In this document: in pieces, positions 1,582 to 15,332 of the stretch
Layout of the letters: every line of letters begins with the position of its first letter
Numbering within the stretch: the stretch's first letter is position 1
Origin: a bacterium
Lineage (GTDB): Bacteria > CG2-30-53-67 > CG2-30-70-394
Assembly (NCBI GenBank): GCA_024278555.1
Contig: JAJRSX010000077.1
Span: 1 to 22,319, forward strand
Direction of reading: 5' to 3'
Length of the DNA stretch: 22,319 nt
Notes under the pieces: generated by a model
Seen by the model: only the letters and a program-made list of their open reading frames with translations
Told to the model about the DNA's origin: nothing
The model's database searches: none
Translations under genes and position numbers: made by a program

Positions 1582-1759
1582 GGGGGGTGGGGGATGGGGG
1601 GTGAGGGGTGAGGGGGTGAAGCCGGCCCTGCGGGCCGCCATGACCTTGTTGTCTGGGAGCTTGGCGAAGAGAGAGAAAAACTCGGTGGCCGGCGCTGCCG
1701 ACCATCCGGCCCCCCCCCTCTGCCATCCCCCACGGGGAAGATCGGATCCGCGCCCGGGC
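1582..1759 (-). other. gspJ-gspK spacer: G-rich/C-rich inverted tracts around a diverged intercistronic repeat
   Basis: There is no gene in this 178-bp gap. Near the ends, G-rich runs on the plus strand (1581-1615) face C-rich runs (1710-1733, including C9 at 1710-1718), so the gap can fold on itself. In mRNA sense the centre reads TTCGCCAAGCTCCC, then ACAACAAGGTCATGGC (ATG at 1641). This matches the core of the gspI-gspJ element, which has CGCAACAAGGTGATGGC, so I read it as a diverged copy of the same repeat. The ATG at 1641 is one base out of phase with gspK. Confidence 0.55.
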
Positions 1760-2548
1760 TCACCGCTGCTCTCCCATGGGGATCTCCACGATCGACCGAA
1801 TTTCGATGGGCTCTGCCTTCTCCCCGTCCGCCGTCTCCTCCTCCTCCGGCGGCAGGAAGAGGGAGATCTGGACGACCCGCGGGAGGGTGTTGCTCTGGGT
1901 CGAGTTCCACTCGTCCACCCAGCCGGTGGGGCCGTAGTAGTGGAAGTCGATGCCGACGACCTGATCACTGAGGAGGTAGTCGATGCCGCCGCTCATGGGG
2001 TCGCCGTCGGGGGTCGCGTCCTCCCGCTTCACCAGGACGTAGGCGGACTCCCCCGCGGCGTCCAGACGGTAGGTCACCTCGGCCACGTCAGACTCCGGCA
2101 GCTCCGGGTGGAGCTTCAGGTGGGAGGCGTGGACCCAGGTGAGGCGGTCGGCGGGCCAGCCTTCGTCGGTGACCGCATTCTCGCCGACAAAGGTGAGGCG
2201 CGGGTCGTCGTTCACCCAGAGGGTGGAGCGCAGCTCCCGGTCGATCATCTCCAAGAGGATGCGTACCGCCTGCTCCCGGTCGCCGCGCCGCTCCATCCGC
2301 TGGAGCCCCCCTACCGTCGACCAGAGGGAGCCGTAGACGAGGGCGAAGACCATCCCCATGAGGCCGAGGGTGACCATCACCTCCACGAGGGTGAAGCCGG
2401 CGGCGCCGAATTCACGCCGGTAGAAAGCAGGTTTAGGCGAGTAGAACGTAGAACGTAGAACGTAGAACGGGGGGCGCATTTCCCGGCGATGGCGGGAAAC
2501 CAGCCCGGCCGCAGACCTGACGCCCGCTGCCAGCGGCTGCCGTGCCAT
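1760..2548 (-). CDS. gspJ: Type II secretion minor pseudopilin GspJ
   Basis: GspJ is a tip pseudopilin that assembles with GspI and GspK. The prepilin peptidase site is clear: REFGAAG|FTLVEVMVTLGLMG, with Glu at +5. It is followed by an amphipathic helix and a beta-rich domain with LLEMIDRELRSTLWVNDDP, DRLTWVHAS, LVKREDATPDGDP, the run QVVGIDFHYYG, and VVQISLFLPP near the end. The mature part is about 211 residues, normal for GspJ. The leader is abnormal: from ATG 2548 it is 51 residues, because the frame runs through the repeat at 2441-2621. Other in-frame starts are GTG 2581 (after GGGGGTGAT) and ATG 2479 (28-residue leader). None has an ideal ribosome binding site. ATG 2548 was chosen because the same ATGGCACGGCAG occurs in the gspI element. 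Confidence 0.85.
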   Translation of the reverse strand: MARQPLAAGVRSAAGLVSRHRREMRPPFYVLRSTFYSPKPAFYRREFGAAGFTLVEVMVTLGLMGMVFALVYGSLWSTVGGLQRMERRGDREQAVRILLEMIDRELRSTLWVNDDPRLTFVGENAVTDEGWPADRLTWVHASHLKLHPELPESDVAEVTYRLDAAGESAYVLVKREDATPDGDPMSGGIDYLLSDQVVGIDFHYYGPTGWVDEWNSTQSNTLPRVVQISLFLPPEEEETADGEKAEPIEIRSIVEIPMGEQR

Positions 2549-2621
2549 CACCTTGTTGCGGTTGCGAAAGAATCGCCTCACATCACCCCCGATCTACCGT
2601 CTACTGCCTACTGTCTACTGC
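2441..2621. repeat. Intercistronic repeat element, gspI-gspJ copy
   Basis: Left end: four perfect GTAGAAC heptamers (2441-2468). Right end: four heptamers of CTACTGY type (2594-2621), in inverse orientation. The core, read on the minus strand, holds TTTCGCAACCGCAACAAG, ATGGCACGGCAGCCGCTGG and GGGCTGGTTTCCCGCCA. It aligns along its length with the gspH-gspI copy and, inverted, with the gspE-gspF copy. The likely gspJ start codon (2548) sits in the core and the left heptamers are translated as part of the GspJ leader. Confidence 0.75.
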
Positions 2622-2628
2622 GGTTGCC

Positions 2629-3135
2629 CTACTTCACCCGAAAGGTCCGTACCCGCACCCGCTCGTTGGGGGCGTCGCCCCAGGAGACCTCGACGCTCAC
2701 CTCGTACACCTTCGCCTTGTCCGTGGAGTACGGCGTCTCCTCCACCCGGGTGGTCCAGTGGTAAGGCGGATCGGGTGCCTCAAAGTCGCCCTCCTGCTCG
2801 CCCGGGGCCGGGGTGCCGTCTTTCAGGGTATCGACCATTCGACTCTTCGCCAGGCGCGCCCCGGTGGCGAGTTGCTGGGCACGCGACGCCATGTCGACGG
2901 TCGAGGCGTGGAGCTGCAGGACCGCCACCAGGGTGGTCCCGAGGATGGCGACCGCGATGAGGACCTCGAGGAGGGTGAATCCCGCGGCGCCGAATTCACG
3001 CCGGTAGAGAATAGAAGGTAGAAAGTAGAAAGGGGGGCGCCGCTCTTCACCTCGGTGGGGAACCAGCCTAACCGCGGCCATGGTGGCTGCTGCCAGCGGC
3101 TGCCGTGCCATCAATCTGTCGCGTTTGCGAAACAT
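2629..3135 (-). CDS. gspI: Type II secretion minor pseudopilin GspI
   Basis: GspI is the organiser of the pseudopilus tip complex with GspJ and GspK. Seen: cleavage motif REFGAAG|FTLLEVLIAVAILG with Glu at +5, then LVAVLQLHASTVDMA, a polar linker, and a short beta-domain ending YEVSVEVSWGD...VRTFRVK, typical of GspI. The mature part is 116 residues, a normal length. The leader is 52 residues from ATG 3135 (preceded by GGGAAAAGA), 44 from ATG 3111 and 34 from ATG 3081; all three starts lie inside the intercistronic repeat, and no start codon exists in this frame nearer the cleavage site. The last nine leader residues (YRREFGAAG) are identical to those of GspJ. Confidence 0.85.
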   Translation of the reverse strand: MFRKRDRLMARQPLAAATMAAVRLVPHRGEERRPPFYFLPSILYRREFGAAGFTLLEVLIAVAILGTTLVAVLQLHASTVDMASRAQQLATGARLAKSRMVDTLKDGTPAPGEQEGDFEAPDPPYHWTTRVEETPYSTDKAKVYEVSVEVSWGDAPNERVRVRTFRVK

Positions 3136-3181
3136 TCTTTTCCCACCAGCCCCTTTCTACTTTCTACCTTCTACTTTCTAC
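3004..3181. repeat. Intercistronic repeat element, gspH-gspI copy
   Basis: Both ends are arrays of four 7-bp units (GTAGAAA type at 3004-3031; TTTCTAC type at 3154-3181). As inverted repeats they match at 26 of 28 positions. The core (minus sense) has TTTCGCAAACGCGACAG, ATGGCACGGCAGCCGCTGG, CAGCAGCCACCATGGCCGCG and GGCTGGTTCCCCACCG. In mRNA the two arms could pair, leaving all candidate gspI start codons in the loop. Confidence 0.78.
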
Positions 3182-3188
3182 CCACTTC

Positions 3189-3902
3189 CTACTGAATCCC
3201 CACCGGGATCTCTTCCAGGAAGCCGTCGAGGCGCCGCACCCGACCGGTGAGGGGCTCGATCACCAGGGTGTACTTATCCCCCTCCGCCTGCACGTGCAGG
3301 AGGGTGCGCTCGACATAGCCGTTCGGGAGGAAGGTGGTGAAGATCGTCTCCTCGCTCCCCTCGGGCCGCCTGCCCTGGAACTGGGTACGCACCTCCACCA
3401 GGTCGACCTTGCCGGGCCACCGCTGCTTCGAGGTCAGGCTCCCCTCATCCTCCTTCTCCTCGCCGGAGGGGGAGACATAGGTCACCCACAGGCTCTCCTT
3501 CTCCCGGTCGTAGTGGAGGCGGTAGGTCCGGTGGGTACGCACCGACCGGTCACGCACCAGGGCGGTGAGGGAGGCGAGGCGACGGGTGGCGAGGCGGATG
3601 TCGGAGGCAAACAGCGGCCGCATGAGGCGCGGCAGCATCACCCCGGCCATCAGGCCGAGGATCAGGACCACCACCATCACCTCCACCAGGGTGAAGCCTC
3701 GATTTCGGCCTGCGGCCGAAATCGAGATGGGGGTGGCGGGACGAAGGCCGGCCGTCACGGGCGGAGGAGGGGAGGGCCGGCACGATCTGGAAGGGAGGGG
3801 GGACAAGGGAACAAGCGGTCCGGATGACCGACGGCGAAGGGTCGGATACGAGATGCGAATGACGACCCGGCAGGGGCAAGAAAGAGAGGTGTCGCGATCC
3901 AC
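3189..3902 (-). CDS. gspH: Type II secretion minor pseudopilin GspH
   Basis: GspH is a minor pseudopilin that joins the tip complex to the GspG filament. Seen: GRNRG|FTLVEVMVVVLILGLMAG with Glu at +5, then SDIRLATRRLASLTALVRDRSVRT and a beta-rich domain with YRLHYDREKESLWVTYVS. The mature domain is 168 residues. GTG 3902 is preceded by CGGAGG at a workable distance but gives a 69-residue leader of low-complexity, Ser/Pro/Arg-rich sequence. GTG 3758 would give a more usual 21-residue leader but has no ribosome binding site. The leader's last residues (SISAAGRN) are encoded by a perfect hairpin. Confidence 0.82.
   Translation of the reverse strand: MDRDTSLSCPCRVVIRISYPTLRRRSSGPLVPLSPLPSRSCRPSPPPPVTAGLRPATPISISAAGRNRGFTLVEVMVVVLILGLMAGVMLPRLMRPLFASDIRLATRRLASLTALVRDRSVRTHRTYRLHYDREKESLWVTYVSPSGEEKEDEGSLTSKQRWPGKVDLVEVRTQFQGRRPEGSEETIFTTFLPNGYVERTLLHVQAEGDKYTLVIEPLTGRVRRLDGFLEEIPVGIQ
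3698..3726. repeat. Perfect 13-bp-arm hairpin (loop TGC) abutting the GspH cleavage site
   Basis: Arms CTCGATTTCGGCC (3698-3710) and the exact complement (3714-3726) flank the loop TGC. The base of the stem falls on the Gly codon of the prepilin cleavage site. Same layout as the hairpin next to gspK (1553-1581), but with different outer arms. Confidence 0.7.
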
Positions 3903-3957
3903 CAGGCCTCCGGCTCGCCACCCCCTTTCTACTTTCTACCTTCTACTACCCTCGCTC
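3727..3957. other. gspG-gspH spacer with one heptamer array
   Basis: Mostly untranslated or leader-encoding sequence. The right end (3926-3946) carries three 7-bp units (TTTCTAC, TTTCTAC, CTTCTAC) identical to units of the gspH-gspI element, but there is no matching array at the left end, which ends in the hairpin instead. A GGGACAAGGGAACAAG stretch lies near 3800. I cannot align the middle convincingly with the other copies; it looks like a chimaera or a decayed element. Confidence 0.5.
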
Positions 3958-4413
3958 CTACTCCAGGTTCCAGCTCTCGATATCGGCGAAGGCACCTTCG
4001 CCGCCGTCCTCGCCGTCGGCACCGTAGCTCTCGATGTCGTAGTCACGGCTGTGGATCCCCGGCGACAGGTAGATGTAGTCGTTGCCCCACGGATCCTTCG
4101 GCACCTTGTCGAGGTAGCCGTCGGCGTTGTACCGCAGGGGCAGGGGCGAGGTGGTCGGTGCGCTCACCAGCGCCTCCAACCCCTGGTCGGTGGTGGGGTA
4201 AAAGCCGTTGTCGGCCCGATAGAGCTTCAGGGCGTTCTCGAGCTGGCGGATGGTCACCGTGGCGGCGGTGCGTTTGGCCGTGTCGGTGCGACCGACAATC
4301 CGCGGCACCACGATGCTCGCCAGCAGCCCGAGGATGAGGACCACCACGATCACCTCGATGAGGGTGAAGCCCGCCTCATCCCGCCTCCGATCTACCTGCT
4401 CTCTCGTGTACAT
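3958..4413 (-). CDS. gspG: Type II secretion major pseudopilin GspG
   Basis: GspG is the repeating subunit of the pseudopilus that drives cargo through the secretin. It has a normal 15-residue leader, MYTREQVDRRRDEAG, cut before FTLIEVIVVVLILGLLASIVVP. The mature part has TIRQLENALKLYRADNGFYPTTDQ, KDPWGNDYIYLSPG and a C-terminal calcium-binding loop region (SYGADGEDGGEGAFADIESW), the family signature. Length 151 residues is standard. Start choice is secure: AGGAG lies 6 bases before the ATG, which is 7 bp downstream of the gspF stop. Among the pseudopilin genes here it is the only one with an ordinary leader and ribosome binding site. Confidence 0.95.
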   Translation of the reverse strand: MYTREQVDRRRDEAGFTLIEVIVVVLILGLLASIVVPRIVGRTDTAKRTAATVTIRQLENALKLYRADNGFYPTTDQGLEALVSAPTTSPLPLRYNADGYLDKVPKDPWGNDYIYLSPGIHSRDYDIESYGADGEDGGEGAFADIESWNLE

Positions 4414-4420
4414 CTTGCTC

Positions 4421-5653
4421 CTAGTGGATGAGCTCGTTGATCTCAAAGATGGGCAGCAGGATAGCGAGAACGATGAACAGCACCAAGAGACCGAGAACAA
4501 CGATCATCACCGGCTCCACCAGAGAGGTGAGGGCGGAGACGGTCACCCCGACGTCCTCCTCGTAGGCGGCGGCGACCCGGTCGAGCATCTCCTCCAGGGA
4601 GCCGGACCGCTCCCCCACGTCGACCATGTGCAGGACGATGGCGGGGAACTCACCGGTGGCGCGCAGCCCCGAGGCGATCCCCCCCCCCTCCTGGACGTGG
4701 GCGCGGACGTCGCCCACCGCGTCCTCGAAGATCCGGTTGAGGACGATGCTCTTGACGATGTCGAGGCCGGCCAGCAGCGGCACGCCGCTCGCCATGAGGG
4801 TGGAGAGGGTGGAGGCGAAACGGGCCACCACCACCTTGCGGATGAGGTTGCCGAAGAGGGGGATGCGCAGCTTGAAGCGGTCGATGGCGCGCCGCCCGGA
4901 GTCGCGCCGCCCCCACAGGCGCAGCCCCACCGCCACCGCCGCGATCACCAGGAAGATCACCCACCAGCGGTGCTCCAAAAAGCGGCTCACCGCCATCAGG
5001 ACCAGGGTCGGGGTGGGCAGATCGGCCTGCATATCGGTGAAGATCTTCGCCACCGACGGCACCACCTTGACGAGCAGGAAGACGACGACGCCGAGGCCGA
5101 TGGTCATCATCACCACCGGATAGGCCAGCGCCGACTGGACCCGGGCGCGCAGAACGGTCTGGGTCTCCATCAGATCGGCGAGGCGCGCCAGGACCACGTC
5201 CAGGGCGCCGCCCGCCTCGCCGGCGCGGACCATGTTGACCATCAGCGGCGAGAAGACCCGCGGGTGGGCGGCAAAGGCGTCGGCGAGGGAGGCACCGCCG
5301 TTGACCGACTCGCGCACAAGGGTGAGGGTGTGGGCCAGACGGCTCCCCTCGCCCTGCTCGATGAGGGCGTTGAGGGCCGCCACCAGGGGCATCCCCGCCC
5401 TCAAGAGGGTGCCGAGCTGGCGCACCGACAGGGAGATCTCCCGCGGGCTCACCCGGGCGAAGAGCTCAACGTTGATCCGCGCCAGGCGCGAGGACTGGGT
5501 CTCCGCCGAGCTCGCCCGCTCCTCCTCCACCTCGGTGGGGAAGACCCCCTGCTTGCGCAGCTTCGCCCGCACCCCCTGGGAGGAGTCGGCGTCCTCGACC
5601 CCCTTGACCCGCTTGCCGGTGGAATCGAGCCCTTCGTAACGGTAGACAGGCAT
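4421..5653 (-). CDS. gspF: Type II secretion inner-membrane platform protein GspF
   Basis: GspF is the polytopic membrane core of the assembly platform. At 410 residues it has the typical length. Seen: N-terminal MPVYRYEGLDSTGKRVKG; two GspF domains, the first with LGTLLRAGMPLVAALNAL and VRAGEAGGALDVVLARLA, the second with STLMASGVPLLAGLDI and VDVGERSGSLEEMLDRVA; and membrane segments near residues 178-198, 231-247 and 381-401. A G10 tract (4679-4688) encodes the Gly run at residues 322-325, in the second domain. The ATG is certain by homology, but no ribosome binding site precedes it, because a heptamer array begins 7 bp upstream. Confidence 0.95.
   Translation of the reverse strand: MPVYRYEGLDSTGKRVKGVEDADSSQGVRAKLRKQGVFPTEVEEERASSAETQSSRLARINVELFARVSPREISLSVRQLGTLLRAGMPLVAALNALIEQGEGSRLAHTLTLVRESVNGGASLADAFAAHPRVFSPLMVNMVRAGEAGGALDVVLARLADLMETQTVLRARVQSALAYPVVMMTIGLGVVVFLLVKVVPSVAKIFTDMQADLPTPTLVLMAVSRFLEHRWWVIFLVIAAVAVGLRLWGRRDSGRRAIDRFKLRIPLFGNLIRKVVVARFASTLSTLMASGVPLLAGLDIVKSIVLNRIFEDAVGDVRAHVQEGGGIASGLRATGEFPAIVLHMVDVGERSGSLEEMLDRVAAAYEEDVGVTVSALTSLVEPVMIVVLGLLVLFIVLAILLPIFEINELIH
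4679..4688 (-). repeat. G10 homopolymer inside gspF
   Basis: Coding-strand run of ten G (GAG GGG GGG GGG ATC) in the second GspF domain. The frame is intact here. A one-base slip would remove the last membrane segment. Confidence 0.75.
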
Positions 5654-5659
5654 GGGAAG

Positions 5660-5843
5660 CAGTAGACAGTAGGTAGTGGACAGTAGACAGGGGGTGGGGG
5701 TGCGGGTGGTCTTTCGCGAGCGTGAAAATGTTCGGGTACGGTGTTTGCTGGCAGCAGGGGCGATCGTCGCGGGGAGGCGATTTTCCCGCCGAAATCAGGA
5801 GGAACCTCCCCCCTGTCTACTACCTACTGTCTACTGTCTTCTG
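5660..5843. repeat. Intercistronic repeat element, gspE-gspF copy (core inverted)
   Basis: It fills nearly all of the 194 bp between the gspE stop and the gspF start. Ends are 7-bp arrays of CAGTAGA type; 5660-5683 and 5813-5836 match as inverted repeats at 23 of 24 positions. The core on the plus strand has CTTTCGCGAGCGTGAAAATG, then GCTGGCAGCAG, CGTCGCGGGGAGGCG and TTTTCCCGCCG. This aligns with the minus strand of the H-I and I-J copies, so this copy lies in the opposite direction relative to the operon. Confidence 0.72.
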
Positions 5844-14793: not shown

Positions 14794-15274
14794 GCTGAGA
14801 GGATCAGCGGAAATAGCAATGCAGGCCAAGTACGGCGTCGCTCCACGCCTCGGCCGGGAGGTGGAGGGCTCCCGGAAGGGATCTTTCACCACAGAGAAAC
14901 GGAGGGCACAGAGAACTCCATTAGAAACACGACTTTGCGCCGTCCTCTTGCACGGCAACCCCGTGGCGCTCCGTTGCGAGGCCCAAGAGGAGGAACGCAC
15001 CTCTCCTTTGCAGTTCTCTGTTCCTTTGCAGTTCTCTGTGTCCTCTGTGTCTCTGTGGTGAAATCGCCTTCCAGGCTCGCGCCGTGATCACCTCGTGACT
15101 CCCTCGACCCTGTTAGCGGTCTCCCCTCCCCCCGGAATCTTGCCCTCTTTCCGATTGCCCGTCGCCGGGCATGAGCTAAGGACAATCGCCATCTCTTGAG
15201 ATGCCGGCGTCGGTCGGCTGAAGCCGACCCTACGGTCTGGTAACCCCATCTTGTTTCCGCTGATCCTCTGAGCC
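14793..15274. repeat. Nested inverted-repeat cassette, 482 bp, no gene
   Basis: This is most of the gene-free stretch 14747-15332. Outer pair: 14793-14813 against 15254-15274, 20 of 21 matching (centre AGAGGATCAGCGG). Inner pair: 14884-14917 against 15030-15063, 31 of 34 matching (TTTCACCACAGAGA ... ACAGAGAACT). Next to the right inner arm is an 18-bp direct repeat (CCTTTGCAGTTCTCTG, 15005 and 15023). A further hairpin, GGTCGGCT-GA-AGCCGACC, lies at 15212-15229. No convincing coding frame crosses it. It may be a decayed MITE-like insertion or a cluster of independent palindromic repeats. Confidence 0.65.
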
Positions 15275-15332
15275 TCAGGGTCGATGCCCCCCCGCCCGGG
15301 ATCGCGGGCGCAACCCACTCCTACCCTCCCCC

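What the first reader, a model, noticed from the sequence alone, without database searches (positions are those of the whole stretch)
2441..5843. A family of ~180-bp heptamer-ended elements sits in successive gaps of one T2SS operon
Seen: three gaps (gspI-J 2441-2621, gspH-I 3004-3181, gspE-F 5660-5843) hold elements of nearly equal size. Each ends in arrays of a 7-bp unit (GTAGAAC, GTAGAAA or GTAGACA classes) in inverted orientation and has an alignable core (TTTCGC-A..CG.., GCTGGCAGC, TTCCC-CCG). The E-F copy has the core inverted relative to the others. A diverged core is in the J-K gap and a single heptamer array in the G-H gap. Gaps C-D, D-E, F-G and K-L are tight and repeat-free. Each copy has its own heptamer type at both ends, except I-J where the two ends differ, which suggests heptamer conversion or expansion. 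Inference: a non-autonomous mobile or recombinogenic repeat that colonised the spacers, or an RNA element selected there. I know of no description of this in T2SS operons.
Basis: partly seen in the sequence, partly recalled or inferred. Interest (0 to 1): 0.78.

Follow-up and report, generated by a model that had tools for sequence, protein, structure and literature searches.

The report
Hairpin-ended relatives of S23/IVP selfish elements
The repeats between these secretion genes belong to a scattered family of hairpin-like insertions whose protein-coding members carry the gene first known from insertions in ribosomal RNA, and such genes in many bacterial phyla are framed by the same kind of 7-letter repeat arrays, which suggests a widespread and largely unrecognised type of mobile DNA.

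Summary
Three ~180-bp elements in the I-J, H-I and E-F gaps end in inverted 7-bp arrays, and their cores align above shuffled background, the E-F core inverted. They are not T2SS-specific: the same arrays occur on 29 contigs of the genome (68 matches, 0 for the reversed control), several as 160-190-bp inverted pairs. A same-genus genome has the H-I element but lacks the I-J and G-H arrays and two dispersed copies, so these look like insertions.

The arrays also frame a coding version: a PF05635/TIGR02436 gene (23S rRNA intervening-sequence protein, IVP/S23, related to DGR Avd). This is general. Of 79 IVP loci from many phyla, 66% have a period-7 array directly upstream, against 11% of other genes; units differ between loci, but the two ends are inverted and matched. 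Cyanobacterial plasmids give filled/empty sites, one with a 5-bp duplication, and ~125-200-bp non-coding copies with the same ends.

Best reading: non-autonomous members of a mobile IVP/S23 element family. How they move is unknown; no reverse transcriptase was detected in the genome. Single pieces are known (23S IVS, heptamers in one IVS, heptamer repeats in several genomes). I found no paper joining them, in an open-licence library.

The parts
2441..2468 (+). I-J element, left array, GTAGAAC x4
2469..2590 (.). I-J element core (non-coding); aligns with H-I core (z=15.2) and inverted E-F core (z=6.8)
2591..2618 (-). I-J element, right array, GTAGACA/GTAGGCA/GTAGACG/GTAGATC, inverted to the left one
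3004..3031 (+). H-I element, left array, GTAGAAA/GTAGAAG class
3032..3153 (.). H-I element core; a diverged element lies at the same place in the same-genus genome G001
3154..3181 (-). H-I element, right array, GTAGAAA/GTAGAAG class
3926..3946 (-). single array in the G-H gap (GTAGAAG GTAGAAA GTAGAAA); gap is ~40 bp and array-free in G001
5662..5689 (+). E-F element, left array, GTAGACA/GTAGGTA class
5690..5813 (.). E-F element core, inverted relative to I-J and H-I cores
5814..5841 (-). E-F element, right array, GTAGACA/GTAGGTA class
1582..1615 (+). J-K gap: array of a second heptamer class (GGGGGTG/GGGGATG/GGGGTGA), the class that also frames the IVP gene on contig C165; membership uncertain
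2399..2479 (-). stretch reading MRPPFYVLRSTFYSPKPAFYRREFGAAG before the FTLVEV cleavage motif of GspJ: ATG at the core edge, then the array; probable use of the insertion as prepilin leader
   Evidence: start codon inferred, not shown

Best explanation
The window elements are short, non-coding members of a dispersed family of selfish hairpin elements whose coding members carry an IVP/S23 four-helix-bundle gene. Each element is a core (non-coding, or an IVP gene) between two inverted tandem arrays of a 7-bp unit (8-9 bp in some lineages). Shown by comparison: anatomy, dispersal, presence/absence between related genomes, the coding version in this genome and in its sister, the general IVP-heptamer association, and filled/empty sites with a short direct duplication in plasmids. 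Inferred: the family spreads by insertion into intergenic spots; a transcribed insertion folds into a stem that the operon tolerates, as RNase III-removed IVS are tolerated in rRNA; the IVP protein, a homologue of the DGR protein Avd with no recognised catalytic domain, recognises the arrays and helps copies move with host enzymes; slippage and conversion between the two arrays of one copy keep its ends alike and let units drift between copies.
For: Dispersal: 68 matches on 29 contigs, control 0; inverted pairs of 160-190 bp. Coding member in the same genome: IVP at C210:1314-1607 between GTAGAAA-class arrays, IVP at C165 between GGGGATG/GGGGTGA arrays; sister-genome IVP at C70:440-748 between GTAGACA arrays. 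79 IVP loci: period-7 score >=8 upstream in 66% vs 11% of other genes (Fisher p 3e-14), downstream 44% vs 16% (p 3e-5); the upstream flank matches the reverse complement of the same locus's downstream flank in 41%, vs 9% for other loci and 9% in direct orientation. Second sample of 28 IVP loci: 24 with 7-, 8- or 9-bp arrays upstream. Insertion: G001 lacks the I-J, G-H, C152 and C198 arrays and has H-I, C98, C10 and C153 copies. Plasmids: GTAAT duplicated at the Trichormus insertion, empty in three other plasmids; insertion between cas10 and cmr3 of PCC 7003, empty in PCC 7002; ~125-200-bp non-coding copies with matching CAGAATT/CAGGAGT arrays. IVP matches TIGR02436 over its cut-off and Avd (NF033474) below its cut-off.
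Against: No transposition was observed and no enzyme identified. In the window's genome the short elements share with its IVP element only the arrays and the adjacent G-run, not the core. A 5-bp duplication is clear at one site, likely at a second and ambiguous at others. About a third of the 79 IVP loci lack a clear upstream period-7 array at the threshold used, and downstream arrays are weaker. Many arrays in this genome are single, without a partner. The genome is a 211-contig assembly that breaks near some arrays.
Confidence: 0.72

Rival explanations
1. The elements are ordinary MITEs mobilised in trans by the DDE or other transposase of an insertion sequence; IVP genes are passengers caught between the same ends.
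For: Short, dispersed, inverted ends, non-coding copies; a 5-bp direct duplication at one site is typical of DDE transposition.
Against: The ends have no fixed sequence: units differ between copies and between lineages. The coding relatives found carry only IVP, in many phyla. No transposase-bearing parent with such ends was met; an exhaustive search was not made.
Confidence: 0.15
2. The arrays are simple heptamer repeats that arise and grow by replication slippage at hairpins; there is no mobile element, and the arrays around IVP genes are a local effect.
For: Heptamer repeats are over-represented in many bacterial genomes (PMC4692102); array length and unit vary at orthologous copies, so slippage surely acts on them.
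Against: Arrays come as inverted pairs around a core or gene and are present or absent as units; cores of dispersed copies are related; the upstream and downstream arrays of an IVP locus match each other.
Confidence: 0.07
3. A local RNA or DNA element with a regulatory role in the T2SS operon (stem loops tuning translation or mRNA stability between pseudopilin genes).
For: Five of the operon's gaps carry arrays; whole copies fold strongly (z -3.2, -8.6, -5.4); the H-I copy is kept in the sister genome.
Against: About 35 other sites in the genome carry the arrays; I-J and G-H arrays are absent from the sister operon; cores fold no better than shuffles; E-F lies in inverse orientation.
Confidence: 0.04
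4. The elements move through an RNA copy made by a reverse transcriptase, with IVP acting as Avd does in diversity-generating retroelements.
For: IVP is homologous to Avd (PMC10053308); IVS are known as RNA excised by RNase III (PMC4990558).
Against: No PF00078 reverse transcriptase in this genome, estimated 100% complete; a past or foreign enzyme cannot be excluded.
Confidence: 0.1

Closest known systems
23S rRNA intervening sequences (IVS) with S23/IVP ORF, e.g. that of Coxiella burnetii (PMC4990558)
   Same: IVP ORF between terminal inverted repeats that form a stem; the Coxiella IVS has tandem heptamers (GACAGAT) before the ORF; called a selfish element
   Different: Here the copies are intergenic and dispersed, the short ones lack the ORF, both ends are heptamer arrays, and units differ by lineage
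Heptamer repeats of Xanthomonas and Nostoc (PMC4692102), TAACTGA repeats of Beggiatoaceae (PMC4679880), heptanucleotide elements of Geobacter metallireducens (PMC2700814)
   Same: Intergenic tandem heptamers; Xanthomonas campestris has 70 inverted pairs and also an IVP protein, XCC0516 (PDB 2GSC)
   Different: Described as simple repeats or regulatory sites and not linked to IVP genes; PMC4692102 reports no general association with mobile elements
MITEs and REPINs (REPINs: PMC3116915)
   Same: Short, dispersed, inverted ends, non-coding
   Different: No fixed terminal inverted repeat and no recognised transposase partner
Cyanobacterial STRR heptamers and small dispersed repeats (Elhai et al. 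2008; from memory, paper not held)
   Same: Heptamer tandem repeats and very small mobile repeats in Nostoc and relatives
   Different: As I recall, not tied to IVP/S23 genes; could not be checked here
DGR accessory protein Avd
   Same: Homologous four-helix-bundle protein (NF033474 match; PMC10053308)
   Different: No reverse transcriptase in this genome; score below the curated Avd cut-off

Membership tests
IVS/S23 (IVP) elements | IVP/S23 ORF (PF05635/TIGR02436) in coding members | tested here: met
   Two in the own genome and one in G001, inside heptamer-ended elements; the window copies themselves are non-coding
IVS/S23 (IVP) elements | Terminal inverted repeats forming a stem | tested here: met
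   Whole-element folding z -3 to -9.5 for the paired copies of this genome, due to the arrays
IVS/S23 (IVP) elements | Location inside rRNA genes (defines IVS in the strict sense) | tested here: not met
   Window copies and those inspected are intergenic; hence relatives of IVS, not IVS
IVS/S23 (IVP) elements | Excision from RNA by RNase III | not testable with these tools
   Needs RNA data
MITE | Short non-coding dispersed element with inverted ends | tested here: met
MITE | Target-site duplication | tested here: inconclusive
   GTAAT clear at one plasmid site, TTCTA likely at another, others ambiguous; none defined in the window
MITE | Ends match a transposase-bearing parent element | tested here: inconclusive
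   Coding relatives found carry IVP only; no exhaustive transposase search was made
REPIN/REP | Conserved ~20-nt palindromes and a RAYT transposase | not tested
   No such palindrome noticed in the copies; RAYT genes not searched
Simple heptamer repeats (STRR/SSR) | Tandem units only, no inserted core or paired ends | tested here: not met
   Inverted pairs around cores or genes, present or absent as units
Diversity-generating retroelement | Reverse transcriptase | tested here: not met
   No PF00078 match in the genome

The most novel reading that the evidence does not exclude
IVP/S23 genes define a phylum-spanning class of mobile element with no recombinase of its own: its ends are locus-specific heptamer arrays rather than fixed sequences, recognised by a four-helix-bundle protein, and its non-autonomous copies are the source of many of the unexplained heptameric intergenic repeats of bacterial genomes.
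Probability: 0.42. Interest if true: 0.9.

Novelty: new variant of a known kind. Interest (0 to 1): 0.78.

Why it matters
IVP/S23 proteins are still called functionally uncharacterised (PMC11270868), and the function and origin of IVS are described as unclear decades after their discovery (PMC4990558). Heptameric repeats are over-represented in many bacterial genomes without explanation (PMC4692102). Joining the two gives both a testable identity: a protein and its cognate ends. It also cautions against reading IVP genes in cas or other operons as functional partners: 18 were listed in cas loci in PMC3936711, and here one such copy, between cas10 and cmr3, is an insertion missing from the sister plasmid. 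In the window, an insertion seems to have become the leader of a pseudopilin.

Tried and rejected
A profile of 18 diverse IVP sequences had no stretch conserved enough for the genome-contig scan; it was redone with three closer sequences, so the 79-locus sample leans to one IVP subgroup; the 28-locus sample comes from the independent 145-genome scan. A looser heptamer pattern was useless (more hits in the control). Core secondary structure as the conserved feature: rejected, cores fold like shuffles. Rfam: no match. Phage records: no IVP match. Reverse transcriptase in the own genome: none. E-F site in the relative: its contig ends before it. C37 site in the relative: contig end, undecided. 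Nostoc edaphicum nrdB-IVP-nrdA: no empty site found. Not tested: whether XCC0516 of Xanthomonas is flanked by GGGAATC arrays.

Full report
Observation. The window is the whole of contig C46 of a 3.06-Mb, 211-contig genome and carries a T2SS operon on the minus strand; GspF, GspE, GspG and GspK pass NCBIfam cut-offs, while GspI, GspH and GspJ match below them. With arrays masked, the I-J, H-I and E-F cores align far above dinucleotide shuffles, the E-F core inverted. The J-K core is marginal, but that gap holds an array of another heptamer class.

Not specific to T2SS. The pattern GTAGANNGTAGANNGTAGA with up to one mismatch hits 68 times on 29 contigs, and 0 times read backwards. Besides the three window copies, inverted pairs of 160-190 bp lie at C10, C37, C98, C152, C153 and C198; many other arrays are single. 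Their cores are related to the T2SS ones in several cases. The arrays point inwards: GTAGA units, a G-run, the core, a C-run, TCTAC units. Whole copies fold strongly because the arrays pair; cores fold like shuffles.

Presence and absence. In the same-genus genome G001 the operon is 79-88% identical. The H-I gap holds a diverged element, the I-J gap has no array, and the G-H gap is about 40 bp and empty. Elsewhere, the C198 and C152 sites have no arrays in G001, while the C10, C153 and C98 sites are occupied. The E-F site could not be compared.

Coding version. On C210 a pair of GTAGAAA-class arrays encloses not a short core but a PF05635 gene; the ortholog in G001 is enclosed by GTAGACA arrays, so the units of one insertion changed together at both ends. 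A second IVP gene, between what read as carA and carB, is enclosed by GGGGATG/GGGGTGA arrays, the class seen in the J-K gap. Of 145 genomes scanned, 53 have IVP matches.

General association. In 79 IVP loci from named genomes of many phyla, period 7 is the best period upstream in 56% and period 14 in 21%, against 10% and 6% of control windows. At score >=8, 66% upstream and 44% downstream, against 11% and 16% for the ends of other genes in the same loci (Fisher 3e-14 and 3e-5). The upstream flank matches the reverse complement of the same locus's downstream flank in 41% of loci, against 9% with another locus's flank and 9% in direct orientation: the ends are inverted and locus-matched. In 28 loci from the 145-genome scan, 19 have period 7, three period 8 and two period 9 upstream. 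One complete 0.79-Mb genome with five IVP copies has 62 strong period-7 arrays, and at most 8 for any other period from 4 to 12.

Insertion events. In cyanobacterial plasmids IVP genes sit in tight gene rows: cas10-IVP-cmr3, a row next to a TrbI/VirB10 gene, nrdB-IVP-nrdA. Three plasmids lack the Trichormus/Scytonema insertion; the empty site AAAAAGTAATTAAC becomes AAAAAGTAAT[element]GTAATTAAC, a 5-bp duplication. A second site in Nostoc plasmids shows a likely TTCTA duplication. PCC 7002 lacks the cas10-cmr3 insertion of PCC 7003. Non-coding copies of about 125-200 bp with matching CAGAATT/CAGGAGT arrays occur in the same group of plasmids, and one site holds different cores in two plasmids.

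Mechanism. Insertion and the IVP association are shown by comparison; movement itself is not. IVP resembles Avd, and its relatives with solved structures are 2GSC and 2RLD; the paper on 2GSC describes five four-helix bundles in its title (cited in PMC10053308). No reverse transcriptase was found in this genome, so a retro-route of its own is unlikely here. I take IVP to be the factor that recognises the arrays, with host enzymes doing the chemistry; this step is inference. In rRNA, the stem of an IVS is cut by RNase III (PMC4990558); whether intergenic copies are processed the same way is not known.

A side effect in the window. The GspJ frame upstream of its cleavage motif has an ATG at the edge of the I-J core, and the leader then runs through the GTAGAAC array; GspI of G001 has the same arrangement in its H-I element. 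The insertion thus probably supplies start codon and leader. The sequence CCGAATTCACGCCGGTAGA beside both the I-J and H-I copies suggests local copying from one gap to the other.

Literature. Pieces are known: IVS as selfish elements and heptamers in the Coxiella IVS (PMC4990558); heptamer repeats, inverted pairs included, in Xanthomonas and Nostoc (PMC4692102), in Beggiatoaceae (PMC4679880) and Geobacter (PMC2700814); IVP genes in cas loci (PMC3936711) and in CPR rRNA insertions (PMC11270868). Ten text searches found no paper joining IVP genes with heptamer ends. Most subscription papers and preprints are not in the library, so novelty is provisional.

Noticed in passing
window 14886-15064, within 14796-15276: A ~178-bp inverted-repeat element with CACAGAG-type units (TTTCACCACAGAGA...TCTCTGTGGTGAAA), nested inside an outer inverted pair GAGAGGATCAGCGGAAA/TTTCCGCTGATCCTCTGAG; similar CGCAGAGACGC-type units follow single arrays at C66, C68 and C188.
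   Followed up: partly
G066:C1 (loci L291-L330): A 0.79-Mb genome with 62 strong period-7 tandem arrays, many in nested or composite inverted elements, including GTAG-type units like those of the window.
   Followed up: partly
window 2399-2479 and L122 near 4303: Heptamer arrays appear to encode prepilin leaders of GspJ (window) and GspI (G001).
   Followed up: partly
contigs C1, C68, C72, C87, C169, C173 (loci L061, L091, L065, L067, L070, L084): Single arrays followed by a shared ~100-bp segment (GCCGGCCGC..GCGGCC, CCCCTCACCCC, often GCGAGCGAAGCGAGC), mostly just before a start codon: a second, one-ended type of repeat.
   Followed up: no
L274 and L280 (Nostoc plasmids), gap before the 441-bp CDS: Same insertion site and array ends but different cores, as if cores were exchanged between arrays.
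   Followed up: no
L271 (Nostoc C052 plasmid pC052_E), 560-830: Decayed IVP copy with the left array kept and the right end deleted.
   Followed up: no
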